Shown here one piece after another: positions 36,807 to 53,138 of a stretch of DNA of 64,000 bases. How positions within the stretch are numbered: position 1 is the first letter of the stretch; each line of letters begins with the position of its first letter. The notes beneath the pieces were generated by a model, which did not search any database, had not been told where the DNA came from, and saw only the letters and a list, made by a program, of their open reading frames with translations. The stretch comes from Musicola paradisiaca NCPPB 2511 (GTDB lineage: Bacteria; Pseudomonadota; Gammaproteobacteria; Enterobacterales; Enterobacteriaceae), in the NCBI RefSeq assembly GCF_000400505.1, contig NZ_CM001857.1:3468390-3532389 (forward strand), written 5' to 3'. Position numbers and translations under genes: made by a program.

Positions 36807-36823
36807 CGCGCTGCGCTTGTTGG

Positions 36824-36866: not shown

Positions 36867-36913
36867 AGTTGTCGTAAAACCATTCGAGCATTCTGCCAAA
36901 CGTCTCTTACACG

Positions 36914-37293: not shown

Positions 37294-37635
37294 ATGGCTG
37301 ACACCGATAGTAACACGGGCGCGTCTTATCAATCACTGCCGGATTATGAGAACCGTTACTCTGCCATGAGTGCCGCGCTGGCTCGTCTGGACTTTTCACA
37401 CATGGATAATGACGAACTCTCGCAGGTCACAGAATATTGCGCCGAAACACAGGCCGGGCTTTGCCATTGCCTGAATTTCATTGGCGATGCGCTAATTACC
37501 TTTGCCGATAATGACGTGTGCGAATCGACGCCAGAAAGCTTGTGCCAGTTGGGGCATGGGTTAACTGCAATTAGTTTACTCATCCCTGCCCTTTCCGATA
37601 TGCACAAACGAGCACACTCACTCACCGTCAGATAA
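37294..37635 (+). CDS. Hypothetical island protein
   Basis: A 113-residue acidic, helical protein that I do not recognise. It has YSAMSAALARLDFSHMDNDE and a cysteine-containing middle (YCAETQAGLCHCLNF). GAGGA precedes the ATG at 37294 by eight bases, and an intrinsic terminator follows the stop, so it is probably real. A DUF3077-like small regulator is possible. The frame is open to 37171. Confidence 0.55.
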   Translation: MADTDSNTGASYQSLPDYENRYSAMSAALARLDFSHMDNDELSQVTEYCAETQAGLCHCLNFIGDALITFADNDVCESTPESLCQLGHGLTAISLLIPALSDMHKRAHSLTVR

Positions 37636-37662
37636 CCATCTGAATATAACCTGCCCGATTAA

Positions 37663-37699
37663 AGCTCTGCCGTGGATGACTCACGGTCAGGGCTTTTTT
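37663..37699 (+). terminator. Rho-independent terminator in the island
   Basis: Twelve-pair stem (AGCTCTG/CAGGGCT with one G-U pair and CCGTG/CACGG, one bulged T) followed by six T. It lies 28 bases after the hypothetical gene ending at 37635. Confidence 0.9.
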
Positions 37700-38522
37700 G
37701 CTTTCGTGACTCAATAACAATAACTCTCCCCATCCGATATTGAGTTGTTTGCAGGCAGCCTCCTCCTTTCCCGATAGCCTTCCCTACTGGCTGATTCCAG
37801 CGGGGTAGACATGCCAACACGTTTTATTTTCGCAGCACTCAACATGCCATTAAGCCACGACGCAGGACGCGACGGGGTTAGGCGGTTGAATACCTGCGCC
37901 TCGCGGGCATTCAACCGTGGCGTGAGGCGAGTAAATGCCATTTCGCAGAAAGGGCTCATTTGCGTCGCCCGAACCCACCCGCGAGCGTTTCCCCCAAGGG
38001 AAACCGAGCTGGCCGGGGGAGCCGAATAAATTTTGCCGCCCCAGCGAGCAAAAAGACGCGCCCACGCGTCGGTTTATTTGGGGGGCGTCAGCCCCGCACA
38101 CCGTCGCCGCTAAGTCTCCGGCCACAAGCCGGTAGCGTGGCGCGACTACCCACTTTGAAGGCGTTTTCCCATTTTTTCGCTGACCGGAACGGGCAAAAGA
38201 AAAAGTGGGCGAAAAACGGCGTCTCAAAGGGGGTAGTCGCGCGTAGCGCGCGACGGTGTGCCGCCGTTGACGTTGGGGGTTTTGGCGTGGCGTCCAGCCG
38301 CGACATTACCCCCATGCGACAGGCAATAAGGGCGTCCAGCCCGCATGAACTGGCGCACGCCGTTCTGTGCCGGGAAATGTATTTTCCGGCACAGGGCTGC
38401 GAAGCGGCCACCGCATTCGCCTCATGACGTCGACTCATGCCAGTGGGCGAAGGTATTCCCCCATGCAATGAGGCGATAAAACCGAAAGAGCAAACACCCC
38501 AGTAAAATGCGAAGGAGGAACC
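37700..38522. other. GC-rich island stretch without a clear gene
   Basis: About 820 bases that differ from the AT-richer island genes. Open frames exist on both strands (37960-38427 on +, 38088-38711 on -), but their proteins are Arg/Pro-rich and low in family-like features, typical of chance frames in GC-rich DNA. It contains dyads such as GCGCGTAGCGCGC near 38240 and GTGCCGG...CCGGCAC at about 38368-38393. In P4-like elements the corresponding place can hold structured RNA or origin sequences; I cannot assign one here. Confidence 0.5.
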
Positions 38523-39266
38523 ATGCTGATTTCTGATTACCGTGAACGCCGGGCGCGTAGTCACGAAAAAATGCGACTTCTGCTCACCTTTTTGAGAGAA
38601 GAAACCTACAGCGACTTTAAAACGTTGATGCTGCTTTTTGATTATAAAAATCACAAGCCGCTTTATCTGTTGCTGGCAAAAGCCATCGACATGGGATTGA
38701 TCCAAAAGCATGAAATAAACATCAAAATGGTGAAAACCTCTCTGTGGGGGATCACCAATGACGGATTATCCGTTGTTGCCACACCCCATGAGGATGGTTT
38801 TCCTGCACGGTTTGAGCCCTCGAAAGTCACTGGCTGGACACTGATGCAGCGCCTTGATCGTCAGCTAGCACGGCTCCTTCTTGAAAAGAAAGGCGCTTAT
38901 GGGTGGATCAGCGGCGCTGATTCAACATTCCGCAGTCGCTACAAGGTATATCATCGCCCGGCCGGGGTGATAACGTTACCAGACGGAACCGTCATCGCCG
39001 TTGAGACTGAGCGCCATCTGAAAACCAAGGCCCGTTATCAGGCAATTATCACACAGCATTTGATAACTCGTACTCAAAAACGTTGGATGTACGTCTTCTA
39101 TATCGTGCCAGATCCACAGAAAAAACGGGCTATCGAACTGCTATTAAATAGTGTCAAACACGCCATCGTGAATCATCAGCACATCCCGCTGGAAGCGAAG
39201 CACCGCAATGTTTTTCGGGTTTATACGGTTGAGGAGTTGAGGGGGTTGGATTTGAATCTTGGCTAA
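38523..39266 (+). CDS. MobC-like replication-relaxation family protein
   Basis: A 247-residue protein. The N-terminal third looks like a winged helix (MRLLLTFLREETYSDFKTL, then LLAKAIDMGLI and WGITNDGLSVV). The C-terminal part (DGTVIAVETERHLKTKARY) resembles the restriction-endonuclease-like core of MobC/replication-relaxation proteins of mobilisable elements. Strong AAGGAGG before the ATG at 38523. A role in plasmid- or island-type DNA processing is inferred from family only. Confidence 0.65.
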   Translation: MLISDYRERRARSHEKMRLLLTFLREETYSDFKTLMLLFDYKNHKPLYLLLAKAIDMGLIQKHEINIKMVKTSLWGITNDGLSVVATPHEDGFPARFEPSKVTGWTLMQRLDRQLARLLLEKKGAYGWISGADSTFRSRYKVYHRPAGVITLPDGTVIAVETERHLKTKARYQAIITQHLITRTQKRWMYVFYIVPDPQKKRAIELLLNSVKHAIVNHQHIPLEAKHRNVFRVYTVEELRGLDLNLG

Positions 39267-39324
39267 TTGCTGAACAACCATGCGAAGTATATACTCACAG
39301 TATGCATAAAAGAGGATCACTATC

Positions 39325-39543
39325 ATGAAACACCGTGTCAGCGTTACCGTGGACAAGGACAATTATCAGGTTCTGAGTGCTGCCGGAGTCAATATTTCCG
39401 GGCTGGTGAATGATGCCATTGGCAAAGAAGCCCGCCGCATCAAAGCTGAAGTGTGGAGAAAGGAAAACCGCGAAGGGATGGAGGAAGTCGCCCGACTCAT
39501 CGCACAGCATGGCTCCTTTGCGGATGAAAACAGGAACTGGTGA
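39325..39543 (+). CDS. ccdA: CcdA-family antitoxin
   Basis: A 72-residue antitoxin: N-terminal ribbon-helix-helix ([20 protein letters not shown]) and a C-terminal toxin-binding tail that ends SFADENRNW, like F-plasmid CcdA. It binds its own promoter with CcdB and neutralises the gyrase poison. Its stop lies two bases before the ccdB start. Confidence 0.95.
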
Positions 39544-39545
39544 TC

Positions 39546-39851
39546 ATGCAATTCATTGTTTATGAATACAAACGAGCCAGTCATTACAAAATGTTTGTCG
39601 ATGTGCAAAGTGATATTGTCGAGACTCCCAAGCGGCGTATGGCTATCCCGCTTATCGAATCGCACCACCTGTCTGAGAAAGTGAATAAAACGCTGTTCCC
39701 GCTGATTCGCATCGATGGGGAAGATTATCGGCTGATGACCACTGAGCTATCGAGCGTTCCTGTTGAGGTCATTGGTGAAGTTATCGCGGATCTTGGCGGC
39801 TACGCAGATGAGATCAAGGATGCTATTAATCTTATGTTTTGGGGGATTTGA
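39546..39851 (+). CDS. ccdB: CcdB-family gyrase-poison toxin
   Basis: A 101-residue toxin, the same length as F-plasmid CcdB, starting [20 protein letters not shown] and ending with the conserved INLMFWGI, whose Trp-Gly-Ile end contacts GyrA. I chose the ATG at 39546; a GTG at 39540 is open but would overlap ccdA. With ccdA it forms an addiction module that may keep the island in the chromosome. Confidence 0.95.
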
Positions 39852-39977
39852 GAGGGGGTTCATTGTGCTTGCATCAAGTCTTATGCATAGCGTCTCTTAA
39901 GCTGAGTACAATCAGTATGTCGGAAGAGCTCTAAAAGTGAATGCCTCAGCTTATTGGTATACTTACAGGCCATAGCC

Positions 39978-41237
39978 TTATAACCCAGGGTGTTTCGCAA
40001 CAATTTTCCCAGTCGTATTATCCAGTCGGTACTGCGAAATAGTTCCGTCCACAATGTGCTGGATAACGGCCTGAACTGTAGCCAATGGGACATTAAACCA
40101 CTCTCTTGGAGTATAGATCTGACCATTATGGCTCTTGAGCGTAATGTTGAGCCGACGGGCAGCGAGGAAACCATGTACCAATGCCTCTAATTTTTGGGCA
40201 TTGAGGTTAAAACACTGGCTGGTAGCCACAATCCTGACAGGTGCTTCAAGGAAAGTACGGTCTTTCTCGGCATGCTCAATGCGCTGCTCCACAGTTGTTT
40301 CAGTAAAACCAATTTTGTAAAGACTTTGTTTATAAGGAATAAGCGCTGGGTCTGTACTTGTGGTCGCGAGCACATAAACCAAGCCGGTCGGCACCGCAGT
40401 ATCTGATGGTTGCAACGTCTTGCCATTGAGTTGCACCTTGCGCCCCTCTTTATCCCTCACCAAACCGTGAGTTAAGGATTGATAGAGCATGTTCATTTCG
40501 GTGCCATTCTCAAATATCAGTCGCAATCGGGCGTTGTAAGTACGGTACTGACCCAGACGTTCACCAGCACTATGGACATATCCCAGTAACCCATTAAGAA
40601 TAAAAAAATCGCCTTCAACAATTTTCAATTTATGTGTAAAACGCTCAAGACTAAAAACCCCATTTTTTAATCCCTTATGCAGGCTATAAAACAAGGGTTC
40701 GAAACGCTGGAAGTCTTGACACGGCTGGCGCTGAGCAATGTCATCTGGCTGCTCTTTTTTATCAGCAGAAACATACTGTAAGCTGAAGATATCAGGTTCT
40801 GCAAAATTTAATAAACCGTCCTCATCGTCGGCAAAAATATCCTCTAAAGAAGTCACCAGTTCTGATTTGTTGGCATAGGATAATGGTGTTGGTTCAGCGG
40901 CTAGTGGGGTTCTACCATTTTCAATATGATTTGAAGCCAGAAGCCCCCGGCAATCCAGCGTTTGCAACGAAGCACATATGTTGGGATTTTCTTTAATGAT
41001 GCGCAATCGTCTTGCCAGGCGTTTTTCATCAAGAGAAGCGGCGCTGTTTTCAGTTGGCATACGGCCATGCCGATCGTAAAACGCGGCAATTTCAGCAAAC
41101 TGATTGCCAGCCAAATCGACAGGACTCGCCTTGTGCTTCAGAGGGTGAACATTCAATAAACAGAGATCATCTTCTTCACTGAGGATCTCATCTAATGTTG
41201 ATTTGGCCGCTAATCGCGTTGTCGATAACCGGATCAT
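39978..41237 (-). CDS. GIY-YIG (T5orf172-type) protein, YeeC-like
   Basis: A 419-residue protein. The C-terminal 138 residues carry a T5orf172-type GIY-YIG nuclease-like domain: VYVLATT near 287, YKIGFTETTVEQRI near 307, a glutamate in QKLEALVH and REWF near 378. The N-terminal 280 residues include a region like the C-terminus of the helicase next door (EIAAFYDRHGRMP). It starts one base after the helicase stop, the third gene of a methyltransferase-helicase-GIY-YIG operon that matches Bacillus subtilis yeeA-yeeB-yeeC in gene order. It may be the effector nuclease; that role is inferred. Confidence 0.8.
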   Translation of the reverse strand: MIRLSTTRLAAKSTLDEILSEEDDLCLLNVHPLKHKASPVDLAGNQFAEIAAFYDRHGRMPTENSAASLDEKRLARRLRIIKENPNICASLQTLDCRGLLASNHIENGRTPLAAEPTPLSYANKSELVTSLEDIFADDEDGLLNFAEPDIFSLQYVSADKKEQPDDIAQRQPCQDFQRFEPLFYSLHKGLKNGVFSLERFTHKLKIVEGDFFILNGLLGYVHSAGERLGQYRTYNARLRLIFENGTEMNMLYQSLTHGLVRDKEGRKVQLNGKTLQPSDTAVPTGLVYVLATTSTDPALIPYKQSLYKIGFTETTVEQRIEHAEKDRTFLEAPVRIVATSQCFNLNAQKLEALVHGFLAARRLNITLKSHNGQIYTPREWFNVPLATVQAVIQHIVDGTISQYRLDNTTGKIVAKHPGL

Positions 41238-41238
41238 T

Positions 41239-43248
41239 TTACTGCTCCTGATTAGCCAACTTCTGTTGCTTCATTTTGCGGATAAAGGCGAGCGCTTCGG
41301 CATAACGCTTCTCAATCGGATCACTGGCATTCAGCGACGGCTCTCTCTGTTGCTCTCGGGTGAACTGCTTGATCTTAGGCCAAAGTATAATTGCTTCTTC
41401 TTCGGAGACCTGCGATCGGCTGGCACTTACCGCTTCCTGAATGGTTTTCAGCATAGGCGCAGTTACCGATTTAGAGAGAATTTCATAAGCACCATGGAAC
41501 GGATTAACCGCATCTATCAGGTCTATATCCAAATTATCAATACAGATGAACTTTTCACCCATCTTCAGGAACTGCTTACCTGCGACACTGTTTACTGACT
41601 CTTCTTCAGCGCCATTCGCCATATCCACATTGGCATCCTGCGGCAGGTCTTCCCAATCAACCACGCCCCCTTTCTGAGTGATCAACATACTTTGTAATAC
41701 TCCTATGCGTACCTGTTCCTGCTCTTCGTCGGTCAAATCTGGGTAAAGCGTCTGAATCACAGCAGGCAAAGCCACTTGAGTGAAAGTTTCGGGGGGTGTG
41801 GTTTCACTGATTGTCTCTTTGACCAACTGTTCGTTAGCCATCAGAGTCGCCATAATTTCGTTCTTGTCACTGTTCAGAATATCCAATACTTTCGGGGATA
41901 CCGGTGAGGTTGCGGAATCATCTACAAGCAAAGTATTGGGTGGCAGTGGCTGACCGTCCCATTGAGAACGAGGCTTAAACTGGATGTTGGGAGCCAGGAT
42001 CTGCTCCATCAATAACGACGTGGTGATCGCCTTAAGCATATTATTGACCGATGCCTTCACGTCATCATCCTGTGCATCAGGTTGAGCGATGAGATTGGTA
42101 AACTGAGCATGCGTTTTTCCCGTACAATCTCGGGTCGCCCGGCCGATAATCTGCACAATTTCTGTCAGAGAGCTGCGATAGCCAATCGTCAACACATGCT
42201 CACAGTAAGGCCAATCAAACCCTTCTTTCGCCATGCCTAAGGCGATGATGATGTCCATGTCATCAACCGCTTTGATATTACGTAAATACGCCTGGATTTT
42301 AGGTCGTTCGTTAGGATTATCATCAACCAGATTGGCTAATTTGAGCTCACAGCCATTTTTTCCCGCAATATGGTAAACCCCAGTCAAAGGATCGCGTTTT
42401 ATCACGCTGCCAAGCACATCGATGATAGCATCGACCTCTCCGTATTTATCTTTGGTTGATTCACCGGAATTGACATTCGGAATATGAATAATCGTTTTTT
42501 TGCTGGTATCGAGTACCGTGGGCAATGCATCAATATAACGCCCCTGATAAAAATGATAACCAATACCCAGAGATTTAAGATATTGATAGCCATTCAGCTG
42601 CTCGTAATAGGTGTATGTCACCTTAGTGAACAGCGCTTCATCCTCAGGCAACAGGATCGGCACGGTATCGCCTCGGAAATATGATCCGGTCATGGCAACG
42701 ATATGCGCACTCGATTTTTTTATGAGCTCATCAATAAGATTACCAAGCCGATTATCACCATCGGCAGAAACATGGTGAAACTCATCAATAGCCACCAGGC
42801 AATTATCGAAATCTGTTACCACTAATTTATCAAAGGCAAAACGCAAGGTCGCATGAGTACATATCAGAATACGTTCGTTGCCCTGCATAAAGCGTTGAAA
42901 AGCCTGAACCTTACCCGCTTCCCCACCATCCACACACAGATTGTTCTCGGATGTAACACGCCAGTCAGCAAAAAAACCTTGTTCGGTTAAATTGGTCTCC
43001 TGAAAAGAGCCACCGATAGACTTTTCCGGAACGGCGACAATCACTTTTCGCACGCTCTGATTTTCCAGCTTATCCAGCCCCAGAAACATTAACGCACGCG
43101 ATTTTCCCGAAGCCGGAGGGGCCTTGATCAATAGATACTGACTATTTCGTTCAGCAAAAGCTCGGGCCTGCATTTCACGCATTCCCATCGAATTAAGGCC
43201 GGTACTTTGCCCCGTCTGACCATACTCAACGTGCAATAAATTATTCAT
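41239..43248 (-). CDS. DExH-box helicase, YeeB-like
   Basis: A 669-residue superfamily 2 helicase with Walker A APPASGKS (residues 43-50), motif II DEFHH near 155, motif III AMTGSYF and motif VI VQIIGRATRD. The C-terminal 250 residues have no recognised domain and may bind the partner proteins. It overlaps the methyltransferase stop by eight bases and leads into the GIY-YIG gene with one base between, so all three are co-translated. It is related to YeeB and to type I/III restriction translocases. If the upstream switch is OFF this gene should lose its promoter. Confidence 0.85.
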   Translation of the reverse strand: MNNLLHVEYGQTGQSTGLNSMGMREMQARAFAERNSQYLLIKAPPASGKSRALMFLGLDKLENQSVRKVIVAVPEKSIGGSFQETNLTEQGFFADWRVTSENNLCVDGGEAGKVQAFQRFMQGNERILICTHATLRFAFDKLVVTDFDNCLVAIDEFHHVSADGDNRLGNLIDELIKKSSAHIVAMTGSYFRGDTVPILLPEDEALFTKVTYTYYEQLNGYQYLKSLGIGYHFYQGRYIDALPTVLDTSKKTIIHIPNVNSGESTKDKYGEVDAIIDVLGSVIKRDPLTGVYHIAGKNGCELKLANLVDDNPNERPKIQAYLRNIKAVDDMDIIIALGMAKEGFDWPYCEHVLTIGYRSSLTEIVQIIGRATRDCTGKTHAQFTNLIAQPDAQDDDVKASVNNMLKAITTSLLMEQILAPNIQFKPRSQWDGQPLPPNTLLVDDSATSPVSPKVLDILNSDKNEIMATLMANEQLVKETISETTPPETFTQVALPAVIQTLYPDLTDEEQEQVRIGVLQSMLITQKGGVVDWEDLPQDANVDMANGAEEESVNSVAGKQFLKMGEKFICIDNLDIDLIDAVNPFHGAYEILSKSVTAPMLKTIQEAVSASRSQVSEEEAIILWPKIKQFTREQQREPSLNASDPIEKRYAEALAFIRKMKQQKLANQEQ

Positions 43249-45856
43249 TATGGTTTCCTGCGTTGGCCGGTGTTCTGCTCTTTCTTGGTTTAGCCTGAGT
43301 TACTGTCAGTTTCTGCGTCAGTGCTTCATAACGTGCCAGCAGGCAGCTTAAGCGGTCGGCTGCATCTTTGAATGGGGGCTCACGGTAAAGTCGATCCACC
43401 GCGGTATCGAGAGCCTGATGGGCGGTTAACAGCTTTTGCGGCATCTTATCGGGATCATAGAGTTCAGCGAGTGTACGTCCTGGGAATTCTTCACGGATTA
43501 AAATCACGTCTTCGGCAAGAATCTCGATTTCTTTGCGTTGTATTTCGGTCACTTCAGGCCAGGGAAAAGGGTTGTAAACTACCGATGCAGAATAGCGATA
43601 GTCACTTTTCAACCTACCAGCTACCAACCTCATCCAGTCGTTATGCATTAAAGAAGAAAGTATGCCGAATTCGTATAGTGTGCCGTTGGGAATAATATAA
43701 TTAAGGTTTGTTGAAATTACCTCTGCATTAAAAAAACCTAGGGGAACATAGGTGCGACGCTCTGATGACACGCTGGGAACTAGGATATAGTTATTAGGGT
43801 TATTTAAATCCCGAAATTGATGTGGCCGCTCTGCCATTTTTTGTGCACCTTTATCAGGACTTTTCCTGCGTGTTTCCGCTACACGCTGCACTCGCTGATA
43901 AACAAGTGGCATTGCCTGAAGCTCATCATTTGTTATCCCTACCAGCCATAAACACCAACGCTCTTTGCTATTTAAATACTCATCGGCCCCCAACAATTTC
44001 TTAATCCAGCGTTCAGATTTGGGTTCTTTTTTTAATAACTCATCCCGTTCCTGCCTACTTAACAATAAGTGTCCACCATCAGTTGGCTTATTGCCAAATA
44101 ATAAAGATGACACTCCGTTAACCATCGGTTTATTCCGTGAAAAAATAGTAATATTACTCCCCTCAATCAAATACGGACTAATATTATCAATCTGCTTACA
44201 ATGCCACTCTCTATTAACTCTCTGATATAATTTTCTTGTTCTTGATTGAGCTGATAACCCGATGATAATTACGTGAACAGCTGCTTTATCACGGGCATTG
44301 TTCACCCATGGAAAAGTTGGATAAGCAAAATGGATATTTAGCCCGAGGGAAAAAATTGGCGGCCACAGTGTCGCAACCTGCTCTCCCTGACAAATGGAAT
44401 TGGTTGCTACCAGGGCCAGCTCAGCACATGAATGTTGAATGTATTGCGCCCCTTTCCAGAACCAGCAAGCAACAAAATCTAAGGTTCCTAACGCTTTGAA
44501 GTCGCTAAATACAGCCTGCATATCAGCACGTTGCTCATCTGAACGTCCCAGTGTTCCTAAAAAGGGCGGATTACCGATTACATACACTTCATCATCAACT
44601 TTTTTAGGACAGACCTGATACCAGTCAAGACGCAAGCTATTACCACTATGAATATTTCCACTTTCACGTAACGGCAATGCCAGTGGCGCGAAACCAAACG
44701 CTTTTTCCCACTGACTATTCACCTGGTGCTCCGCCAGCCAGAGGGATAACCGAGCGATCTGGCTGGCGAAGTCATCAATCTCAATGCCGTAAAACTGTGA
44801 CAGATGAAGACCGCTCATTGAAAATGTTTGAGGTTCCAGCTCACGCAGAGCTTCAATCACTTCAATTTCCAGATTGCGTAACGCTTTGTAGGCCACAATC
44901 AGGAAATTACCGGATCCACATGCAGGATCGAATACTTTGATCTTGCCGAGTCGCACCAGTAACGCTTTAAGCCCCTTGGCATTGTTACGTTGTTTATCCA
45001 GTTCAACGCGTAACGGATCAAGAAACAGGGGCTGAATCACCTTCATGATATTGCGATATGAAGTGTAGTGCTGCCCTAAGCGGCTGCGCTGTTCCACATC
45101 AATCACAGCCTGGAACATGCTGCCGAAAATGTCTGGGTTAATCTCACTCCAGTTCATGGTTCCGCATTCGAGTAAGATCTTGCGCCCCTTTTTGCGCAGT
45201 TCGGGAACCGGTTCATCGCTGGCAAACAATCCACCATTTACATACGGAAATGCTGCAAGATGGGCGGGTAGCCTTTGCCGCTGCGGGCTGTCAGGCTTCT
45301 CATCTAACACACCAAATAACTGATAAAGAAATGAATCCAGATCGCTGCCATCTTCTTCGGTAAAACTTTTGACAGCAGACGTGAACTGGGCGAGGGCAAA
45401 AATACCGGTGTCTTCGGCAAAAAGGCAAAATAACAAGCGAGTCAGGAAGACGTTAAGGGCATGGATATCTTCCGACTTACTGAGGTCATTGTGGACTCGG
45501 ATGAGGTCAAACAATCTCCCCATCTTCTCGGCGGCCTTCACATCAGCAGGGTTTTCACTGCTGATAATGGCTTTCTCAAGGCCCACTAACGGCAAAAAGA
45601 AACCATAGTTGCTATGTAACTCGTCCATTTCAATGTCGAGCCGCTCTTTACTTGCGGTATCCCAAGCCAGAAAGCGAGTAAAATCAGTGATCAGCACGAA
45701 GCGGATCTTATTTTTAGCTATCGCTGGGTCATCAATGCACTGATTTAGCAGAGTCTCAAGCTCTTCTCCTTCCGCAGCAGACTGAAACCAGAGTTTATTC
45801 TTGATACCGACCTGACCAGGCTCTTTAGCGATGTTACGGCTACTGCCCTGACGCAC
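43241..45856 (-). CDS. Adenine DNA methyltransferase body, YeeA/DnmA-like, N-terminus detached
   Basis: Large class I N6-adenine methyltransferase. The visible frame gives 871 residues from a poor GTG start at 45856; SAM motif FDPACGSGNF is near 309 and the catalytic NPPF near 429, followed by a target-recognition region and a C-terminal YRYSASVVYNPFPWPE block as in B. subtilis YeeA (DnmA). Family members have about 40 more residues in front, with PK-A/S-TIT-X-L/V-R-X-G crossing the present edge. Those residues are found inverted on the + strand at 45934-46052. The open frame continues upstream to about 45900 without a start, so in this orientation the gene is probably silent. See the invertible-segment entry. 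Confidence 0.8.
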   Translation of the reverse strand: MRQGSSRNIAKEPGQVGIKNKLWFQSAAEGEELETLLNQCIDDPAIAKNKIRFVLITDFTRFLAWDTASKERLDIEMDELHSNYGFFLPLVGLEKAIISSENPADVKAAEKMGRLFDLIRVHNDLSKSEDIHALNVFLTRLLFCLFAEDTGIFALAQFTSAVKSFTEEDGSDLDSFLYQLFGVLDEKPDSPQRQRLPAHLAAFPYVNGGLFASDEPVPELRKKGRKILLECGTMNWSEINPDIFGSMFQAVIDVEQRSRLGQHYTSYRNIMKVIQPLFLDPLRVELDKQRNNAKGLKALLVRLGKIKVFDPACGSGNFLIVAYKALRNLEIEVIEALRELEPQTFSMSGLHLSQFYGIEIDDFASQIARLSLWLAEHQVNSQWEKAFGFAPLALPLRESGNIHSGNSLRLDWYQVCPKKVDDEVYVIGNPPFLGTLGRSDEQRADMQAVFSDFKALGTLDFVACWFWKGAQYIQHSCAELALVATNSICQGEQVATLWPPIFSLGLNIHFAYPTFPWVNNARDKAAVHVIIIGLSAQSRTRKLYQRVNREWHCKQIDNISPYLIEGSNITIFSRNKPMVNGVSSLLFGNKPTDGGHLLLSRQERDELLKKEPKSERWIKKLLGADEYLNSKERWCLWLVGITNDELQAMPLVYQRVQRVAETRRKSPDKGAQKMAERPHQFRDLNNPNNYILVPSVSSERRTYVPLGFFNAEVISTNLNYIIPNGTLYEFGILSSLMHNDWMRLVAGRLKSDYRYSASVVYNPFPWPEVTEIQRKEIEILAEDVILIREEFPGRTLAELYDPDKMPQKLLTAHQALDTAVDRLYREPPFKDAADRLSCLLARYEALTQKLTVTQAKPRKSRTPANAGNHNE

Positions 45857-46059
45857 CTGTGTAATCGTTGGTTTATCTACAAGCGGTATATAGTTATGGC
45901 AAAAAACAAGTTATGCATTCTGAAGGATCATGTATGGCAGTGAATCAGGCGAGGATTTTCGAGCAGCTTGAACAGATAACCCACGAGCTGAATCGTGATG
46001 AATTTATTTATGGTTTTATGGCCGCTTTTGATTTTCCTAAATCAACAATTATGCAGATG
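45854..46059. promoter_or_regulatory. Putative invertible 5'-end switch of the methyltransferase operon
   Basis: The sequence at 45854-45874 read on the - strand and the sequence at 46039-46059 read on the + strand agree at 16 of 21 positions and are in the same codon phase: K-P-T-I-T-Q-V against K-S-T-I-M-Q-M. Both have AA at the centre, as in Hin/Pin sites, and the left copy keeps the AAACCAA core of hix. Recombination at the AA pairs (about 45868 and 46044) would flip about 175 bases and join 39 N-terminal codons, start and ribosome site to the methyltransferase body, giving about 912 residues. A Pin-like invertase begins 53 bases to the right. The geometry is seen; inversion itself is inferred. 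Confidence 0.75.
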
Positions 46060-46146
46060 AGCGTTATCTGGCGATCTGGCATTCTCCGTGCTTTTAGCAG
46101 GAGGAAATGGCGTGTTAATAGGCTATGTCAGGGTATCAACAAATGA
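45934..46146 (+). CDS. Inverted 5' end of the methyltransferase gene (truncated frame)
   Basis: A 70-codon frame starting MAVNQARIFEQLEQ with AAGGA seven bases before the ATG. Residues 1-39, up to DFPKSTI, look like the N-terminal helical segment of YeeA-type methyltransferases (DEFIYGFMAAFDFPKSTI). From the repeat onward it reads unrelated sequence and ends at 46146 inside the invertase gene. In the opposite orientation these codons would open the methyltransferase. In the present one the truncated frame overlaps the invertase start by 35 bases and could couple its translation. Confidence 0.7.
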   Translation: MAVNQARIFEQLEQITHELNRDEFIYGFMAAFDFPKSTIMQMSVIWRSGILRAFSRRKWRVNRLCQGINK

Positions 46147-46681
46147 CCAAAACACCGATTTACAACGCGAAGCGTTGGAACGGCTAGGATGTGAACAGAT
46201 ATTTGAAGAGAAAATCAGTGGGACTACAGAGAAAAAACCGAAACTCAATAGTGCTCTGAAGGCATTACAGGCGGGGGATACGCTCGCGGTGTGGAAACTG
46301 GATCGATTGGGACGAAGCATGAGACAACTTGTCAAATTAATGGACACGTTGCAACAACGCGGGATTCATTTTCGTAGTGTGACCGATTCCATAGATACCG
46401 CCACGCCAATGGGAAGGTTTGTTTTTCACATTATGGGTGCGATGGCTGAAATGGAACGAGAGCTTATTGTCGAACGAACCCGTGCGGGTTTGGCTGCCGC
46501 TAGGGCTAAAGGACGCATAGGCGGACGCAGGCCCAAGCTAACGCCGGAGCAATGGGCGCAAGCCGGACATCTTCTGGCTAATGGCGTCCCGCGCCAGCAG
46601 GTGGCACTGATTTATGACGTAGCAGTAGATACCTTATATCGAAAATTCCCCGTCGGCAGAAAACTGAGGGCCAAAACGTAA
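46112..46681 (+). CDS. Serine recombinase, Pin/Hin-type DNA invertase
   Basis: A 189-residue site-specific recombinase. The catalytic domain starts LIGYVRVSTNDQNTDLQREA with the active serine in VRVSTND, then KLDRLGRSMRQL and MGAMAEMERELIVERT. The C-terminal helix-turn-helix (QVALIYDVAVDTLYRKFP) binds the crossover sites. Size and layout match Pin, Gin and Hin (about 184-193 residues) rather than large resolvases. I chose the GTG at 46112 with AGGAGG seven bases upstream; the frame is open to 46088. Its likely substrate is the adjacent inverted repeat, where the methyltransferase 5' end is flipped. Hin-family enzymes also need Fis and an enhancer, which I did not locate. Confidence 0.93.
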   Translation: MLIGYVRVSTNDQNTDLQREALERLGCEQIFEEKISGTTEKKPKLNSALKALQAGDTLAVWKLDRLGRSMRQLVKLMDTLQQRGIHFRSVTDSIDTATPMGRFVFHIMGAMAEMERELIVERTRAGLAAARAKGRIGGRRPKLTPEQWAQAGHLLANGVPRQQVALIYDVAVDTLYRKFPVGRKLRAKT

Positions 46682-46709
46682 CGTTGAAAAGATCAAGTAA
46701 TCTATTTTT

Positions 46710-46745
46710 GGTAAACCTGTCTTCCAGCAGAGAGACAGGTTTACC
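46710..46745. repeat. Perfect 12-bp inverted repeat between invertase and res
   Basis: GGTAAACCTGTC at 46710-46721 and its exact complement at 46734-46745 with a 12-base loop. It lies between two convergent genes. There is no T-run on the 3' side of either strand, so it may work as a simple hairpin barrier or an intrinsic terminator of low strength. Confidence 0.6.
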
Positions 46746-46794
46746 ACTGATTATCCAGCCTATTCCTCACAGGCCCATGCAGCTACAGCCGACA

Positions 46795-49779
46795 CTAGAT
46801 ATTCCACTGTTCAGGTACGGAAACCGCATACTCGATGCCAATTTCTCTGAAGTGTGCCTCGGCAGACTTGATTTTGGCATTTTCTGAGGGTCTCCTTTTT
46901 TGTTCATCCATGGTGCTCTTGGTTTCGCGAACCATATAGATGCGGTCTTCGCCTTCTTCGGATTTGATGATGGCCCAGTCGGGGTTATAAGGGCCAACCG
47001 GCGTGTCGATCTGGAATCTTGGCGGAAGCTTCATAAACAGCCTGATATCCTCGCGGTGATCGAGAAACTCGGCGAACTTTCGCTCCGGGCTGTCCGGCCC
47101 GCCATCAAACACGACGTAATCAAAATCGGTTTTCTCAGGGTGTTCGACGCGGTACAAATGCTCTTTGAAGAAATCCTTTTCGGCAAGGCCATCGGCTTGC
47201 AACTCGCGGAGTTCATAGATGGAGCCGCCGATCTTTTCATACTGAACGCCTTCAACAATGACGCGCTGTAGTTCACCCTCTACGCAACGGCGTACCATCG
47301 CCATGAAGTCGTTCGGATTGGCAATGAACTCATCCAATCTTCCGCTACCAATGAGAATATCCACCAGCGTCTTGCGTGTAAGAGACGTACCTTGCTGCAA
47401 CTCACCGATAATGTCCGGCAGGTCATAACTGCCTTTGAGATCGACAGTTCGTGCCCCCAGTTCTAGCCCTTGCGTGCCGCCACGTAGCACCCTGACACCA
47501 GCACGAGTGACATCAATACGTAACGGCTGAATTTTGGGTTCAGCCTTGATCGCCTTTATGCACGTCTCAACCAGCATAGGGTGTTTAACTGTCACCCGAT
47601 AAGTGGTTTTCTGGCTGATAGCGCTCCAAAGCCTCTCAAAATCCGGCGAGGCGTAGAGCTCTTTGTTGAATTTCCGTTTGGCCCGCGCACTTACGGGCTT
47701 CACATATTTCTCAATACCCGCATTAAGAATGCAGTGGATAATATCTGTTTCGTAGGGCCTGAACTCAGCCGGCAAATGTAGTGAGAATCCTGCTGCATCC
47801 GGCAGAAACATGGAAGTTGTCTTACCATCCTTGATGAATCCTGAGTTTTCCAGATGCTTGAATATGGCAGAAGACATCCTGAACCCCAGCATGTCATCGG
47901 TCATCGCACCATGAGGATCCCGTTTCATCAACTTGGCAAATTCATTGGGGCGTACCTGTCCGATGGCTACCCCCGCCTCCCTGTATTCAGCTTGCAGGTT
48001 CTGAGCGAACGTAGCATAAGACTCGTTAGCAACTACCGTGAGTTGTGCAACGCTACGATCGGAAACACGCTCATAGCCTTTTACTGTTTTCGCCACTGGC
48101 AGGCGCAGACCACGTCCCAAGGTTTGCCGACGTTCCGTTTCCGCGCCCATTTCACGCAGCGTACAAATCTGAAACACGTTAGGGTTGTCCCAGCCCTCGC
48201 GCAGTGCGGAATGGCTAAAGATGAAGCGTACTGGTTCTGCGTCGTCCAGCAGACGCTGCTTGTCTTGCATAATGAGTTTGTAGGCATCGTCATCTTTAGC
48301 TGTTGTGCCTGACGAATCCACAAAGGTCGTGCCAACACGTGTTTTCAGTTGGGAAAAATACGCCCGCCGTAATTCGCAAGGATCCTGCGGCAGCAATGTT
48401 TGGTAGACGCCAGACTTGCTACGCTCTTCCCTGAACACCTCATCGAACCACTTCGTGAACTCGCCGTTTGCGTCTTCGTTGTTCACCCCGTCGCCGAGAA
48501 AACTCGCCACCTTGTCGACGAAAAACAGACTCAATACTTTAATCCCCTTCGGGCGCAACATCGCTTCCTTGCGCAAATGCTCACGCACGGTTTCCCTAAT
48601 CATTTCCTTGTAAATCGCGCCCGTGGCGCCCCCCAAGGACTCACCTTCGTGCAGCAGATTCCCATTCGGCATCAGTTCAATACTGGCCGGGTCACCGAAC
48701 GCGGCGATGCTTAAAGCATTAATACGCCAGCCAGTATAAGCAGGATTTCCACTGACGTCTGACAATTCCTGATGCGGTTTGACCTTTTTGCTACGACGCG
48801 CGATAGATCCATCGGCCTTGCGACAAGCCAGTTCAAGTTTCGCGGCTTTCGTGTCTTTCACTTCGAGCAACTTGACGTATGGCGCAACGTCCGCACCGTG
48901 CTGTGCGACCTCAGCCACAACGATCTGCTTCACCAAACCGAGATCGTGCGCGTCAACCGGATCGAGCCGGTAGACCAGATTTCGTCGTTGCTTGTGCGTG
49001 GCCGAGTAGCGCAGTGTAAATACGGGATCGAGCTCGCCCACTGCCGACTGCGATAGTAGCGACTCCATATTCTGTGGTTCATCCATGATCACCACGGGAT
49101 GCGTGCCTTTCAGGTAATCCAGCGGACGCAAGCCATTGAGTTTGTCGCGCTGCTGGTGAATGATGCGCGTATTCTTGTTACCGCGTATCGCATCGATCGT
49201 CATCACCAGTATTTGCACGTTGGTCGCAGTAGCAAAGGCCTGTACTTCCTCAGCCTTGTCGCCGCTGTAAACATTCGCATCGAAAGGCTGCGCCGGATAG
49301 AGACTGCGGAAGTGCTCCCGCATCAGACGAATGCTGGTGTTGACCCCCTCACGGATGGCGACGCTGGGAACGAGGACGATAAACTTGGTGAAACCATATT
49401 TCTTGGCCAGTTCGAAAACAGTGCGCAGATAAACGTAAGTTTTGCCCGTACCGGTCTCCATTTCGATGTCGAAATCCAGTTTATCATCAACCAGCTTTTC
49501 GCTGACCTCCAGCCCGTTGCGATCCTGCACCGTTTGTAAGTTAGCAAGGATAGTGCCTTCATCCAGTACCAGATTATTGCCGATAGCGCCGATCTCCTGT
49601 TCGATGCCTAAATCCAGTTCACCTTCCCGGCTAGCAACATTGCCACGCAAGGCAATCGCGATCTTGTCGGCATCCTTTGGCTGACCATCGAACAAATCCA
49701 CCACGGCGTTGATGGCATCAAGCTGATATTGCTGATACGAATCAAATTGAAAGCCCGTATTTTGAGAATGACTGTTCAT
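46795..49779 (-). CDS. Type III restriction enzyme, Res subunit
   Basis: A 994-residue ATP-dependent restriction subunit. The superfamily 2 motor shows Walker A METGTGKTYVYL near 108, IMDEPQNM as motif II, SALREGWDNPNVFQICTL and RRQTLGRGLRLPV as late motifs. The C-terminal nuclease shows Pro-Asp in YNPDWAIIK and Glu-X-Lys in VRETKST. It cuts DNA carrying two inversely oriented unmodified sites when bound to Mod. I use the ATG at 49779, which overlaps the mod stop as TGATG; a GTG at 49782 is also open. Both key sites are intact, so the enzyme should be active. Confidence 0.95.
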   Translation of the reverse strand: MNSHSQNTGFQFDSYQQYQLDAINAVVDLFDGQPKDADKIAIALRGNVASREGELDLGIEQEIGAIGNNLVLDEGTILANLQTVQDRNGLEVSEKLVDDKLDFDIEMETGTGKTYVYLRTVFELAKKYGFTKFIVLVPSVAIREGVNTSIRLMREHFRSLYPAQPFDANVYSGDKAEEVQAFATATNVQILVMTIDAIRGNKNTRIIHQQRDKLNGLRPLDYLKGTHPVVIMDEPQNMESLLSQSAVGELDPVFTLRYSATHKQRRNLVYRLDPVDAHDLGLVKQIVVAEVAQHGADVAPYVKLLEVKDTKAAKLELACRKADGSIARRSKKVKPHQELSDVSGNPAYTGWRINALSIAAFGDPASIELMPNGNLLHEGESLGGATGAIYKEMIRETVREHLRKEAMLRPKGIKVLSLFFVDKVASFLGDGVNNEDANGEFTKWFDEVFREERSKSGVYQTLLPQDPCELRRAYFSQLKTRVGTTFVDSSGTTAKDDDAYKLIMQDKQRLLDDAEPVRFIFSHSALREGWDNPNVFQICTLREMGAETERRQTLGRGLRLPVAKTVKGYERVSDRSVAQLTVVANESYATFAQNLQAEYREAGVAIGQVRPNEFAKLMKRDPHGAMTDDMLGFRMSSAIFKHLENSGFIKDGKTTSMFLPDAAGFSLHLPAEFRPYETDIIHCILNAGIEKYVKPVSARAKRKFNKELYASPDFERLWSAISQKTTYRVTVKHPMLVETCIKAIKAEPKIQPLRIDVTRAGVRVLRGGTQGLELGARTVDLKGSYDLPDIIGELQQGTSLTRKTLVDILIGSGRLDEFIANPNDFMAMVRRCVEGELQRVIVEGVQYEKIGGSIYELRELQADGLAEKDFFKEHLYRVEHPEKTDFDYVVFDGGPDSPERKFAEFLDHREDIRLFMKLPPRFQIDTPVGPYNPDWAIIKSEEGEDRIYMVRETKSTMDEQKRRPSENAKIKSAEAHFREIGIEYAVSVPEQWNI

Positions 49780-51761
49780 CACGCCGTCCTCAGCTCAATA
49801 CCTTTGCTTCTGGCATATTGAGCAATATTGGTTTTCAGTTCGTCGTCACCGTGGAAGGCATCTTCCAGAACGATCAGGCGCGTAGGTTCGGCATTCACCA
49901 GTTCCCGCAATTGTTCCAGTGTGGGTTTAGTTCGCTCGTTTAAGTACGCCAGCAGATGGGGCTTGTCTGCGTCGCCAACGATGGCATGGATGTCCAGCCC
50001 GGCGATAGTCTGTACACTGAGATGTTCGTTCAACGAATAGCCGAGTTTCAGCAGCAGCTCAGTAAGCAGGTCATCGGGACTGGCCTCATCAGTGCTACTG
50101 CCACGCAGGTCGAGCAAATGCTGGGTTAGCTTATCTGGTTCGATATCGCTGGTGACTCGCCATTTGGTGAAATTGGTGTCCGTCAGCTTATAGGCGCGGA
50201 AGCCGGTATCTATATTGCTTTCTGCAACATCGGATTTTATTTTCTCGCCCGCTAGTTCGATGCGCTTGCGCGAGATATCAGCAATAGTGGCAAAGCCTGC
50301 CTTGCGCGCTTCTGAAGCTTCAGGAGTAGGTTCAGGTAGTTGTACCATGATAAAACGACGTTTGCCGTTGTCTTCAGCATTAAGCTGCATTACGGCATGA
50401 GCGGTGGTGGCACTGCCAGCGAAGAAATCAAGGATGATGTCTTCATCACTCATGATTTGCTCGGCAAGTGAAAAAATAAGCGAAACAGGTTTCGGAAAAC
50501 TGAAAACACCATTTCCAATTAGTCCGTTTGTTTCCCTGGTTCCCACAGCGGTATTTGAATCAGTTATTACCGAACTCATATTCTTAAAAAGACTTCGCAT
50601 TTCTTTAAGAAACAATTTATGTCTGGGGCGACCACCAGAAGTCGCTGGGAATAAGATTCTGCCTTCCATGATCTTTTTTCGCATGGTTTCCGGTTCGAAT
50701 CGCCATCCTTTCGGTGGGCACCCATAATTTTCGCAAGTGGCAGGGTTTATCAGGTCATAGTGTAAGTTTGGTCGAGCATCTTTTGCCGCTAATCCTGTAA
50801 GATCGGCACTACGCCATGGGCCACGTGGATCATTGTCTGGATTATTAAACTTCGTTTTGTCTTTTTCCGTTCCACGAAAAACAGCATTCTCAGTTTTTGA
50901 ATAAACGAGAATGTACTCGTGGTCAGTTGAAACACCCGTCGTAGCTCGAGTATCTTCGCTTACTCTAGACTTCCAAATAAGTTGCGCAATAAAGCGCCCT
51001 TCACCAAAAACCTCATTGCAAAGTTTACGAAGGTTCTCCTGTTCATTGTCATCAATCGAAATAAAAATCACTCCATCATCGGTGAGCAAATTACGGGCTA
51101 ACTTAAGGCGCGGGTACATCATGTTCAGCCAGTTGGAGTGATAACGCCCTTCGGTCTCGCTGTTGGTGGAAACTTTCTTACCTTCCTCGTTCACCTGCCG
51201 CGTCCACTCCAGATAACTGTCCAGCCCTTCCTTGTAGTTATCGGGATAAACAAAATCCTTTCCGGTGTTGTAAGGCGGGTCGATATAAATCAGCTTGACC
51301 TTGTTGTGATAATGTCGTTGCAGGATCTTCAGTACTTCGAGATTGTCTCCCTCGATAAACACATTCCGCGTCGTGTCCCACTCTTTCGAATTGACGGAAT
51401 CTGGTTTTAGGGTGGCGGTAGTCGGTGCCTGTGCGGCGCGCAGCGCGCGCTTTTTGCCCGGCCAGAACAGGCCAAAGCGCTCATTACTGTCAGCCACATC
51501 ATCGGCCAGCAGTTCACGAAGTTTTTCGACATCCAGCTTGCCATCCGCAACAACCTCTGGAATTAGTTCGGCAAGCTGACCAGCCAGTTCGGTACGGAAA
51601 TTCGGGGTAGTGCTTGGGATGTCAAAGAGGTCGCTGCTGATATCGGAAGGTGATGAACAAAACTCATCCTGCTGACCCTCAGCCAAGGCATCAATACTGC
51701 AATGTTGTTCCGCATTTTCTTTCTGTTTAGCGCTAAATTCAGTAATACGTTCATTTGCCAT
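49779..51761 (-). CDS. Type III DNA methyltransferase, Mod subunit
   Basis: A 660-residue N6-adenine methyltransferase of the beta class: catalytic DPPYNTG near 161 comes before the SAM motif DFFAGSATTAHAVMQL. Between them is the variable target-recognition region that sets the site for both modification and restriction. The first 100 residues are a low-complexity acidic extension that includes SDISSDLFDIPS. It is followed directly by res with one base of overlap. No simple repeat tract is seen in the gene, so the repeat-type phase variation known for some mod genes is not indicated. Confidence 0.95.
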   Translation of the reverse strand: MANERITEFSAKQKENAEQHCSIDALAEGQQDEFCSSPSDISSDLFDIPSTTPNFRTELAGQLAELIPEVVADGKLDVEKLRELLADDVADSNERFGLFWPGKKRALRAAQAPTTATLKPDSVNSKEWDTTRNVFIEGDNLEVLKILQRHYHNKVKLIYIDPPYNTGKDFVYPDNYKEGLDSYLEWTRQVNEEGKKVSTNSETEGRYHSNWLNMMYPRLKLARNLLTDDGVIFISIDDNEQENLRKLCNEVFGEGRFIAQLIWKSRVSEDTRATTGVSTDHEYILVYSKTENAVFRGTEKDKTKFNNPDNDPRGPWRSADLTGLAAKDARPNLHYDLINPATCENYGCPPKGWRFEPETMRKKIMEGRILFPATSGGRPRHKLFLKEMRSLFKNMSSVITDSNTAVGTRETNGLIGNGVFSFPKPVSLIFSLAEQIMSDEDIILDFFAGSATTAHAVMQLNAEDNGKRRFIMVQLPEPTPEASEARKAGFATIADISRKRIELAGEKIKSDVAESNIDTGFRAYKLTDTNFTKWRVTSDIEPDKLTQHLLDLRGSSTDEASPDDLLTELLLKLGYSLNEHLSVQTIAGLDIHAIVGDADKPHLLAYLNERTKPTLEQLRELVNAEPTRLIVLEDAFHGDDELKTNIAQYARSKGIELRTA

Positions 51762-52013
51762 ACTGATAATCCGGTGTGTTTTAGTGATTGTTGTACGTTA
51801 TATATGGATGTTACGGGTCATTGGTTCGATAGCAATACTTAATTTAGCACTTCAGAGTGAGGATGCCTGCTGATTCTGACTGATGCCGCACCGGATTATC
51901 AGTGTGATATGTAAAACACGTCGTCTGAGTAGACTGCCTGGTAAGTCGGGATTCCCGACATAAAAAATGACGATATTTAGCTCAACATCGTCATCTAAAA
52001 GTTATCTACATCG

Positions 52014-53138
52014 CTACAGTGGGCTGATAAGCACCCTATCAACTGAATTCACTGAGATAGCGCCGGGTGGCGGAAGCCTCTTACCGTTTTTCGCTGCTAT
52101 AGCCTGAAATCGAAGTAATTCCACAGAGGCAATTTTCAAGGCATCATCATGCGTTGAAGCCGTCACAGACAGGTTATCAAGATCGGAAAATTTCAGCGTA
52201 ACCGTTGTATCATCGGCAGCAATATCCGCTGGGTAAGGAACAAAGATGGAGGCGAGTTTTTTAGCCTGTTTCTTATGTGCATCCAGTTTGCTCACGAGGT
52301 GTGTTGCACGAAGGTGGGTGTAGCGTTTCAACATATTCATCGATTTATGACCTGATATCGCCGCCACTTCCATAACATTTAGCGTTCCCAGTTCAAAGAA
52401 TCGGCTGATTGCCTCATGTCTGAGATCGTGAAAATGTAGATCGTCGATAGCCAGAGCCTTCAAAGCCACACGCCATGCGCTTTTAAACCCACTCGACGTG
52501 TAGCTAAAAATATAGCCATTCTCATGATGTGGCCGTTCACCTAAGCCACTCAGAATTTGCCGCGCTTTTGATGACAATGGAACGTCTCGCGATGTCCCAT
52601 TTTTCGTCAAAGGTAAATGGGCAACGCCGAGGCGAAGATCGGTATATTCCCATCGCAACGACAAAATTTCGCCTTGCCGCATTCCCGTTTCCAATGCAAT
52701 GTGAAAAATAGCCAATAATTCAGGATTTTTATCTTTGAAGTATCTGGTTAACCGTCGCTCTTCATGAGTCGTTAACCTCCGGGTACGGCCTGACGATACG
52801 GTAGGCTTGCGAATATTTTCAACAGGGTTTATAGAGCATGTGCCCCACTCAACTTTTGCCAGATTATAAAGCGCCGATAACAATGCTAATTCCAGTCGCA
52901 CAGTATTCGCACTTATCGGCTTTTGCGTTCTGGCGTTAAATTCCGATAATCTAGTATCTCTATATTCTGCAATGTCTATGGATGAAATTTCATCCATATT
53001 TCTGTTAGCCAAACGAGAACGCTTAATAACGTTGATTCGATAGAACTCCTGCAATTGTCCTCGTTTATGTCGCGAAACCGTGGAAAAATATTTATCCAAC
53101 GCTTTACTTAACAGTATATTTTTTATACGTTTTTTCAC
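52014..53138 (-). CDS. Tyrosine recombinase with HicB-like C-terminal tail
   Basis: A 374-residue phage-type integrase. Catalytic residues: Arg in [16 protein letters not shown], Lys in TKNGTSR, His-X-X-Arg in [11 protein letters not shown], late His in [15 protein letters not shown], where the Tyr follows. After residue 310 there is an extra segment ([16 protein letters not shown], then [13 protein letters not shown] and GKRLPPPG) that resembles the HicB-antitoxin fold. Start GTG at 53138, with GGGAAG upstream. It lies near the far end of the island and may be a second integrase from an older insertion. Its target is unknown. Confidence 0.85.

What the first reader, a model, noticed from the sequence alone, without database searches (positions are those of the whole stretch)
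45854..46681. Invertible 5'-end switch controlling a DNA methyltransferase-helicase-GIY-YIG operon
The methyltransferase gene on the - strand has lost its start. Its missing N-terminal 39 codons, start codon and ribosome site lie just beside it in reverse orientation. The two edges form an imperfect inverted repeat (16 of 21 bases) that keeps codon phase, so a flip of about 175 bases restores an in-frame protein of about 912 residues. The rebuilt junction (FDFPKSTITQVRQGSSRN) fits the matching stretch of B. subtilis YeeA as I recall it (YDVPRATITRLKKGN). A Pin/Hin-type invertase starts 53 bases away. Invertases are known to flip phage tail fibre and flagellin genes and specificity subunits; an inversion that detaches the N-terminus and promoter of a YeeA-type methyltransferase is not one I know of.
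Basis: partly seen in the sequence, partly recalled or inferred. Interest (0 to 1): 0.92.

Follow-up and report, generated by a model that had tools for sequence, protein, structure and literature searches.

The report
Flip switch inside a DNA-methyltransferase gene
The first 39 codons of a bacterial DNA-methylating defence gene lie backwards beside it, next to an invertase gene, here and in one related genome, while other relatives encode the same protein correctly joined, so flipping this 176-base piece likely switches the whole defence operon on and off.

Summary
The methyltransferase body (MmeI/DnmA-YeeA type, followed by helicase and GIY-YIG genes) lacks its start; its N-terminal 39 codons lie reversed at 45934-46050. 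Intact homologues carry this N-terminus in front. The two edges are degenerate Pin/Gin crossover sites with the same central AA; the one beside the invertase ends 54 bases before its start, as in all seven e14-Pin-like loci among 80 phage-type loci. A second genome (island 93.6% identical) is in the same reversed state; close database relatives carry the forward product, one matching the predicted rebuilt protein without a difference over 200 residues. Invertase, helicase and nuclease genes show purifying selection. No reads, and no DNA of a forward locus beside this invertase, could be seen, so reversibility is inferred.

New here: 6 kb away, a 112-base segment between 18-base inverted repeats in front of the type III R-M mod gene is flipped between the two genomes, beside an Rci-like tyrosine recombinase. 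The island therefore likely carries two independent switches on two R-M systems, run by unrelated recombinases.

The parts
45934..46050 (+). N-terminal 39 codons of the methyltransferase, reversed relative to the body
   Evidence: joined to the body in intact homologues
45856..45881 (-). Left crossover site (reaching into the body's codons), TGTAGATAAACC-AA-CGATTACACAGG
   Evidence: rank 25 of 127,950 26-mers of the window (both strands) against a matrix of 86 distinct phage site sequences; central AA
46032..46057 (+). Right crossover site, TTTTCCTAAATC-AA-CAATTATGCAGA, ending 54 bases before the invertase start
   Evidence: rank 4 of 127,950; distance -54 with AA centre as in 7 of 7 e14-Pin-like loci; spacer to the invertase 26-28 of 54 identical to those loci, 19 or fewer to the others scored
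45869..46044 (.). Invertible segment, about 176 bases, centre to centre of the two sites
   Evidence: unique in the genome
46112..46681 (+). Serine invertase, 189 aa, Gin/Pin/Hin type
   Evidence: PF00239 5.8e-50, PF02796 1.8e-13; the only match in the genome at E 1e-3
43241..45856 (-). Methyltransferase body, MmeI/DnmA-YeeA type, start missing in this orientation
   Evidence: PF20464, PF20465, PF20473, PF20466, PF20467; MmeI_N matched only from profile position 84, in the complete relative P0012 from position 2
41239..43248 (-). DEAD/DEAH helicase (YeeB-like), overlapping the body's end by 8 bases
   Evidence: same order in homologous loci
39978..41237 (-). GIY-YIG / T5orf172 nuclease (YeeC-like)
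   Evidence: PF13455, PF10544
51759..51906 (.). Second invertible segment: 18-base inverted repeats (51759-51776, 51889-51906) around 112 bases, in front of mod
   Evidence: inverted between the window and G343
52014..53138 (-). Rci-like tyrosine recombinase beside the second segment
   Evidence: PF00589; 63% identity over 373 aa to the integrase beside a pilV shufflon
49779..51761 (-). Type III R-M mod gene; its ATG sits at the edge of the inner repeat
46795..49782 (-). Type III R-M res gene

Best explanation
This is a phase switch in which the adjacent Pin/Gin-type serine invertase is predicted to flip a 176-base segment that carries the start codon, a likely ribosome site and the first 39 codons of an MmeI/DnmA-type methyltransferase, and so would turn the methyltransferase-helicase-GIY-YIG operon on and off. 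Shown: in this genome and in G343 the segment is reversed (off form); relatives with a nearly identical body encode the joined protein (on form); the edges are degenerate Pin-type sites with equal central AA, one of them at the canonical place beside the invertase; exchange at these centres restores the frame exactly. Inferred: that this invertase does it, that it is reversible, and that the off form makes no working enzyme. Likely origin: an e14-Pin-like invertase with its own site landed beside a methyltransferase whose codons for FPK(S/A)TIT already resembled half a site. In the off form the segment's reading frame runs past the invertase start (stop at 46146, GTG at 46112), so whatever transcribes the segment would also express the invertase and favour a return to on; this last step is a hypothesis.
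For: Inversion against intact homologues in DNA and protein. P0010 equals the predicted on product with 0 differences in its first 200 residues; P0012 is a complete on form with the same C-terminal extension; P0245 and P0247 carry the on junction. Off-type starts in P0002-P0005 and P0008, off-junction ORFs P0241-P0243. On and off are mixed within one 13-row clade with 100/100 support. Crossover sites: 78 of 80 phage-type loci have one within 400 bases upstream of the invertase; 70 have centre GA at -64 to -66, one AA at -64, seven AA at -54; the window has AA at -54, and its spacer resembles only those seven. None of the 80 stretches holds the methyltransferase, so they are an independent yardstick. 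Synonymous/non-synonymous changes window to G343: invertase 10/1, helicase 45/13, GIY-YIG 9/2, body residues 1-440 14/5, no stops, although both genomes are off. Three of the nearest relatives start, without a start codon, exactly at (T)ITQVRQG and a fourth inside the segment, as if contigs broke there. Two separate assemblies agree.
Against: No reads were available, and no DNA was seen in which an on form stands beside this invertase: the on forms are protein records, and so are the off forms other than the window and G343. Both full DNA loci are off, with identical N-terminal codons. The left site ranks only 25th in the window, and the repeat alone is common. Of 11 homologues without this invertase scored at the same codons (9 distinct sites), two score above the predicted on gene site (L037 11.3, L002 7.5; on site 6.9), L009 gets 1.6 and eight are negative, so the gene-side score is not specific. 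The body as a whole shows 148/127 changes, because its recognition domain was exchanged. Strongly supported branches of the tree force only one change of state, and the four counted changes treat P0007 as on. Selection could have acted mostly before the inversion.
Confidence: 0.85

Rival explanations
1. A single, now fixed inversion broke the gene in an ancestor of these strains; the operon is decaying and the neighbouring invertase is incidental.
For: Both genomes seen as DNA are in the same reversed state with identical N-terminal codons; the sites are degenerate; the tree does not force more than one change on strong branches.
Against: On forms lie inside the same close clade; invertase, helicase and nuclease keep low non-synonymous change and no stops; the body's 440 residues before the recognition domain keep 14 synonymous to 5 non-synonymous changes.
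Confidence: 0.09
2. The reversed state is not off: the 871-residue body is translated from the internal GTG and works, so the inversion only changes level or activity.
For: Proteins of several relatives are recorded as starting there (P0002-P0005, P0008); the NPPF motif and the recognition domain are in the body.
Against: By eye no ribosome site precedes the GTG; the MmeI_N domain is cut (profile 84-179 of 181, against 2-179 in P0012); close homologues with an unbroken gene have the N-terminus.
Confidence: 0.12
3. Another recombinase, for instance a prophage invertase acting in trans, flips the segment.
For: Several Pin enzymes can invert the same e14 segment (PMC12529663, passages seen).
Against: The adjacent gene is the only invertase of this type found in the genome at E 1e-3 and sits at the canonical distance from the site.
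Confidence: 0.05

Closest known systems
Gin/Pin/Hin DNA invertase switches (e14 P segment, Mu G segment, Salmonella hin)
   Same: Invertase family, 26-base sites with a central dinucleotide, a site at the same distance upstream of the invertase as in e14-Pin-like loci.
   Different: Segment of only 176 bases; the target is the 5' end of a methyltransferase gene, not tail fibres or a flagellin promoter; the sites are strongly degenerate and one consists of conserved codons.
DnmA-YeeB-YeeC (B. subtilis) and its V. crassostreae homologues
   Same: MmeI-like methyltransferase, helicase and T5orf172 nuclease together (PMC9973331, passages seen, which also cites a phage-sensitivity effect in Vibrio).
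   Different: No switch is mentioned in the passages read; here start codon and N-terminus sit on an invertible segment.
Phase-variable type I R-M by hsdS inversion; type IIG and type III by repeat slippage
   Same: Random on/off or specificity change of a methyltransferase (PMC4948785 and PMC4889913 seen as listings with the start of the abstract; PMC11868660 passages).
   Different: Those shuffle specificity domains or slip in repeats (partly recalled); here an inversion detaches the start of an MmeI-type enzyme.
Intragenic and promoter invertons (Chanin 2024, Jiang 2019)
   Same: Short inversions that recode a gene or flip a promoter; seen only as references and short mentions in PMC11868660, the rest recalled.
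   Different: Whether those surveys list this locus is not known to me; the papers themselves were not read.
Rci shufflon of IncI-type plasmids
   Same: For the second switch: recombinase 63% identical to the one beside pilV, repeats share AATCCGGT with sfx sites.
   Different: One segment in front of a type III mod gene, not a multi-segment pilus-tip shufflon.

Membership tests
Gin/Pin/Hin serine DNA invertase | Resolvase catalytic domain plus HTH_7 DNA-binding domain, about 190 aa | tested here: met
   up to 78% to the nearest relatives outside its own cluster, 76-80% to the viral-contig copies listed
Gin/Pin/Hin serine DNA invertase | Crossover site just upstream of the invertase gene | tested here: met
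   ends at -54, spacer like e14-Pin-like loci
Gin/Pin/Hin serine DNA invertase | Two inverted sites with identical central dinucleotide | tested here: met
   AA in both; arms degenerate, the left one only rank 25
Gin/Pin/Hin serine DNA invertase | Fis-bound enhancer in or near the invertase gene | tested here: inconclusive
   identical codons among synonymous positions 0.51-0.57 in the first 90 bases, 0.14-0.50 later; no Fis site scan
Gin/Pin/Hin serine DNA invertase | Catalysed inversion | not testable with these tools
   needs reads or bench work
DnmA-YeeBC (MmeI-like methyltransferase cluster) | MmeI domain order N, helical, methyltransferase, TRD, C | tested here: met
   MmeI_N complete in the on form P0012, cut in the window
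DnmA-YeeBC (MmeI-like methyltransferase cluster) | Helicase and T5orf172 genes directly downstream | tested here: met
DnmA-YeeBC (MmeI-like methyltransferase cluster) | No endonuclease motif in the methyltransferase | tested here: inconclusive
   no D-x(8-12)-E-x-K in the first 260 residues of P0012; the motif is recalled, not taken from a call
DnmA-YeeBC (MmeI-like methyltransferase cluster) | m6A methylation of an asymmetric site | not testable with these tools
   no methylome
Rci shufflon (second switch) | Rci-type tyrosine recombinase | tested here: met
Rci shufflon (second switch) | sfx sites GTGCCAATCCGGT plus arm | tested here: inconclusive
   CTGATAATCCGGT shares AATCCGGT; core differs
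Rci shufflon (second switch) | Several segments at the end of pilV | tested here: not met
   single segment in front of mod

The most novel reading that the evidence does not exclude
One mobile island carries a two-bit methylation and defence switch: a captured phage serine invertase flips the 5' end of a DnmA-type operon, while an unrelated shufflon-type tyrosine recombinase flips the promoter of a type III R-M system 6 kb away, so a clone splits into four methylome and immunity states; in the off state the first segment drives its own invertase and so pushes cells back to on.
Probability: 0.45. Interest if true: 0.85.

Novelty: new variant of a known kind. Interest (0 to 1): 0.74.

Why it matters
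If true, it shows how a phage-type invertase can be captured as a regulator of a bacterial immune operon, using a site made of the target gene's own codons, and why a DnmA-type cluster can look broken or silent in a sequenced genome: such genes would be recorded as truncated or as starting at an internal GTG, so off-state defence systems would be counted as dead. Together with the second inversion it offers a simple test case for bet-hedging of restriction-modification: two unrelated recombinases, two systems, one island.

Tried and rejected
Rejected: assembly error (two assemblies agree); duplication of the N-terminus (no second copy). Dropped as evidence: the inverted repeat on its own and the site score of the gene-side site (control). 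Promoter scoring of both segments gave only weak, undecided candidates.

Searches for an on-form DNA locus beside the invertase failed. E. coli: no match in near mode; distant mode 8 genomes, of which I fetched one (L009), intact and without the invertase. Plasmids: 683 records matched the region, none over 80% of it, and the 40 rows listed all match from query position 633 or later, that is from the right-hand site and the invertase; of 443 records with the methyltransferase I fetched six (L005-L008, L010, L011), none with this invertase beside it (L007 has weak matches to another resolvase). Genome contigs: 3 loci, none with the invertase. Viral contigs: one homologue without invertase, no match for the joined junction, and none of the 80 invertase loci holds the methyltransferase. 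Whole genomes: the counter stood at 1,600 of 2,000 over overlapping samples and mixed queries; the switch was seen only in G000 and G343.

Literature: six searches aimed at such an arrangement listed 15 of 268, 20 of 75, 15 of 158, 15 of 43, 15 of 106 and 12 of 12 papers; none of the listings describes it. They cover open-licence PMC papers only, mostly seen as listings, so this is weak evidence of absence.

Rows dropped: of the 120 listed proteins I read 16; of P0001-P0012, P0011 (starts inside the body) was left out of the tree. Of the 12 proteins, six (P0246, P0248-P0252) are other homologues and P0244 has a junction that I could not explain.
Full report
OBSERVATION. The window lies in a 4.63-Mb single-contig genome. 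On the minus strand, 45856-43241 encodes 871 residues of an MmeI-type methyltransferase (PF20464, PF20465, PF20473, PF20466, PF20467), followed by a DEAD/DEAH helicase (43248-41239) and a GIY-YIG/T5orf172 protein (41237-39978). The ORF begins at a GTG inside a conserved stretch, and the MmeI_N domain is matched only from profile position 84. On the plus strand, 45934-46050 encodes the missing N-terminus. In five plasmid homologues, one E. coli chromosome, Providencia and Serratia this sequence stands in frame in front of the body; tblastn of the 39 residues alone finds 40 plasmid records, 38 of them over at least 80% of the query. In the Providencia locus, blastn aligns the body and the N-terminal part on opposite strands of the window. 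The segment has no second copy in the genome. Some fetched homologues lack a detectable N-terminus: L003, L008, L015 and L038, which are shortened or broken, and distant ones (L039, L040, L042, L044-L055) at E 0.01.

CROSSOVER SITES. The invertase (46112-46681; PF00239, PF02796) is up to 80% identical to invertases of viral contigs and 78% to the nearest database relatives outside its own cluster. I took 80 viral loci with such invertases and looked for 26-base sites of the Pin/Gin type: 78 of 80 have one within 400 bases upstream of codon 1. A full tally gives 70 sites with centre GA at -64 to -66, one with AA at -64 and seven with AA at -54. The window's right-hand site, TTTTCCTAAATC-AA-CAATTATGCAGA, ends at -54 and has AA, the e14-Pin-like type. 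The 54-base spacer shares 26-28 bases with those loci and 19 or fewer with the others scored. The left-hand site, TGTAGATAAACC-AA-CGATTACACAGG, has the same centre. Against a matrix of 86 distinct site sequences from these loci, gathered with a fixed core pattern, the two rank 4th and 25th of 127,950 26-mers in the window. Published e14 repeats read CCTTCTCCCAAACCAA (PMC12529663, passages). Exchange at the two AA centres gives FPKSTI-TQVRQG in frame. As a control, 11 homologues without this invertase (9 distinct sites) were scored at the same codons: L037 (11.3) and L002 (7.5) score above the predicted on gene site (6.9), L009 scores 1.6, and eight (L004-L007, L010, L011, L036, L056) are negative. 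So the gene-side site looks like conserved coding sequence that happens to resemble a site, and its score alone proves nothing.

BOTH STATES IN RELATIVES. A protein search with the body returned 7,404 proteins at E 1e-200 or better among 7,999 scored; the best 120 were listed and I read 16. Of the twelve nearest, five start at the internal MRQGSSRN (off type: P0002-P0005, P0008), P0012 (Klebsiella, 914 aa) and P0010 (Pectobacterium versatile, partial) have the joined N-terminus, P0007 appears joined but in another frame before the site, P0001, P0006 and P0009 start without a start codon exactly at (T)ITQVRQG, and P0011 is uninformative. P0010 equals the predicted product of the window with no difference over its first 200 residues. 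Searching the reversed-frame ORF of the off state gave 12 proteins: P0241-P0243 have the off junction, P0245 (a 250-base contig, Pectobacterium punjabense) and P0247 the on junction, P0244 an unexplained one, six are other homologues. P0005 and P0242, body and reversed ORF of Lonsdalea quercina, both list a longest contig of 1,011,689 bases, as expected of one off locus. In a tree of 455 columns before the recognition domain, the clade with this switch (13 rows) has 100/100 support and mixes on and off; with the outgroup and with P0007 counted as on, four changes are needed, though strongly supported branches force only one. These are protein records: I saw no DNA of an on locus beside the invertase.

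SECOND GENOME. G343, of another genus in the same family, carries the island at 93.6% identity over 14.6 kb, with the same reversed N-terminus and invertase (1,504 bases at 98.5%). Counts of synonymous to non-synonymous changes are: invertase 10 to 1, helicase 45 to 13, GIY-YIG 9 to 2, res 171 to 54, mod 96 to 35, Rci-like gene 30 to 10, with no stops; the 39 N-terminal codons are identical and say nothing. The body as a whole gives 148 to 127, but residues 1-440 differ by 14 to 5 and 441-700 are so divergent (dS about 1.3) that the recognition domain has evidently been exchanged. A gene without a start in both lines should decay if it never returned to the on state; this is an argument, not proof, since part of the selection may predate the inversion.

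SECOND SWITCH. The same comparison showed 148 bases at 51759-51906 aligned in the opposite sense to their flanks at 91%. They are bounded by 18-20-base inverted repeats around CTGATAATCCGGTG, the ATG of the type III mod gene sits at the inner edge, and a tyrosine recombinase (52014-53138) stands beside them. It is 63% identical over 373 residues to the integrase next to a pilV shufflon on an IncK2/Z plasmid, and the repeats share AATCCGGT with Rci's sfx sites (PMC4176322, passages). Here an inversion between two genomes is seen directly in DNA. That it flips a promoter is inferred; simple promoter scoring did not decide which orientation is on. In another genome (L141) a related recombinase (80%) and the same repeats occur with no mod in the 1.2 kb held beyond them.

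FUNCTION. DnmA, formerly YeeA, of B. subtilis is MmeI-like, stands with YeeB and YeeC and makes m6A; in B. subtilis the cluster did not protect from the phages tested, whereas deletion of homologues in Vibrio crassostreae is cited as raising sensitivity to some phages (PMC9973331, passages). The likely effect of the switch is therefore random on/off expression of a methylation and defence operon. In the off state the segment's frame ends at 46146, past the invertase start at 46112, so a transcript from the segment would cover the invertase; this feedback is a hypothesis. Codon identity to phage invertases is raised in the first 90 bases of the gene, roughly where an enhancer about 100 bases from the site would be expected from Hin (PMC3798978, passages), but no Fis sites were tested.

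VERDICT. The finding is real, its reading well supported, and it belongs to the known kind of invertase switches with a new target and a new origin of one site. The pair of switches on two R-M systems in one island is the more novel part. Six paper searches aimed at such an arrangement listed nothing like it; they reach open-licence papers only and I saw mostly listings.

Noticed in passing
window 51759-51906: Second invertible segment, flipped between the window and G343, in front of the type III mod gene and beside an Rci-like tyrosine recombinase.
   Followed up: partly
window 43241-45856, residues about 501-700 of the body: The target recognition domain is exchanged between the window and G343 (50-80% identity per 50 residues, dS about 1.3) while residues 1-440 are nearly identical.
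   Followed up: partly
L141 2778-2907: Rci homologue (80%) with the same inverted repeats and spacing but no mod in the 1.2 kb held beyond them; perhaps a remnant of the cassette.
   Followed up: no
P0007 (895 aa): Appears to be in the on orientation but read in another frame before the site (LNQPTITQ), as if four bases were duplicated at the crossover; imprecise exchange or an assembly mix (protein only).
   Followed up: no
P0244 (53 aa, contig of 1,195 bases): The same N-terminus runs into a different sequence after FPKS; a third junction type.
   Followed up: no
window 35310-39266: tRNA-Phe followed by an integrase (35526-36806) and, at 38523, a MobC-like gene: the R-M genes probably lie in an island at tRNA-Phe.
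   Followed up: no
window 46709-46746: Perfect 14-base inverted repeat with a 10-base loop between invertase and res, perhaps a two-way terminator.
   Followed up: no
L019 2-429 against window 39309-39968: A second, 77-79% similar copy of stretches downstream of the GIY-YIG gene lies at the other end of the fetched G343 stretch.
   Followed up: no
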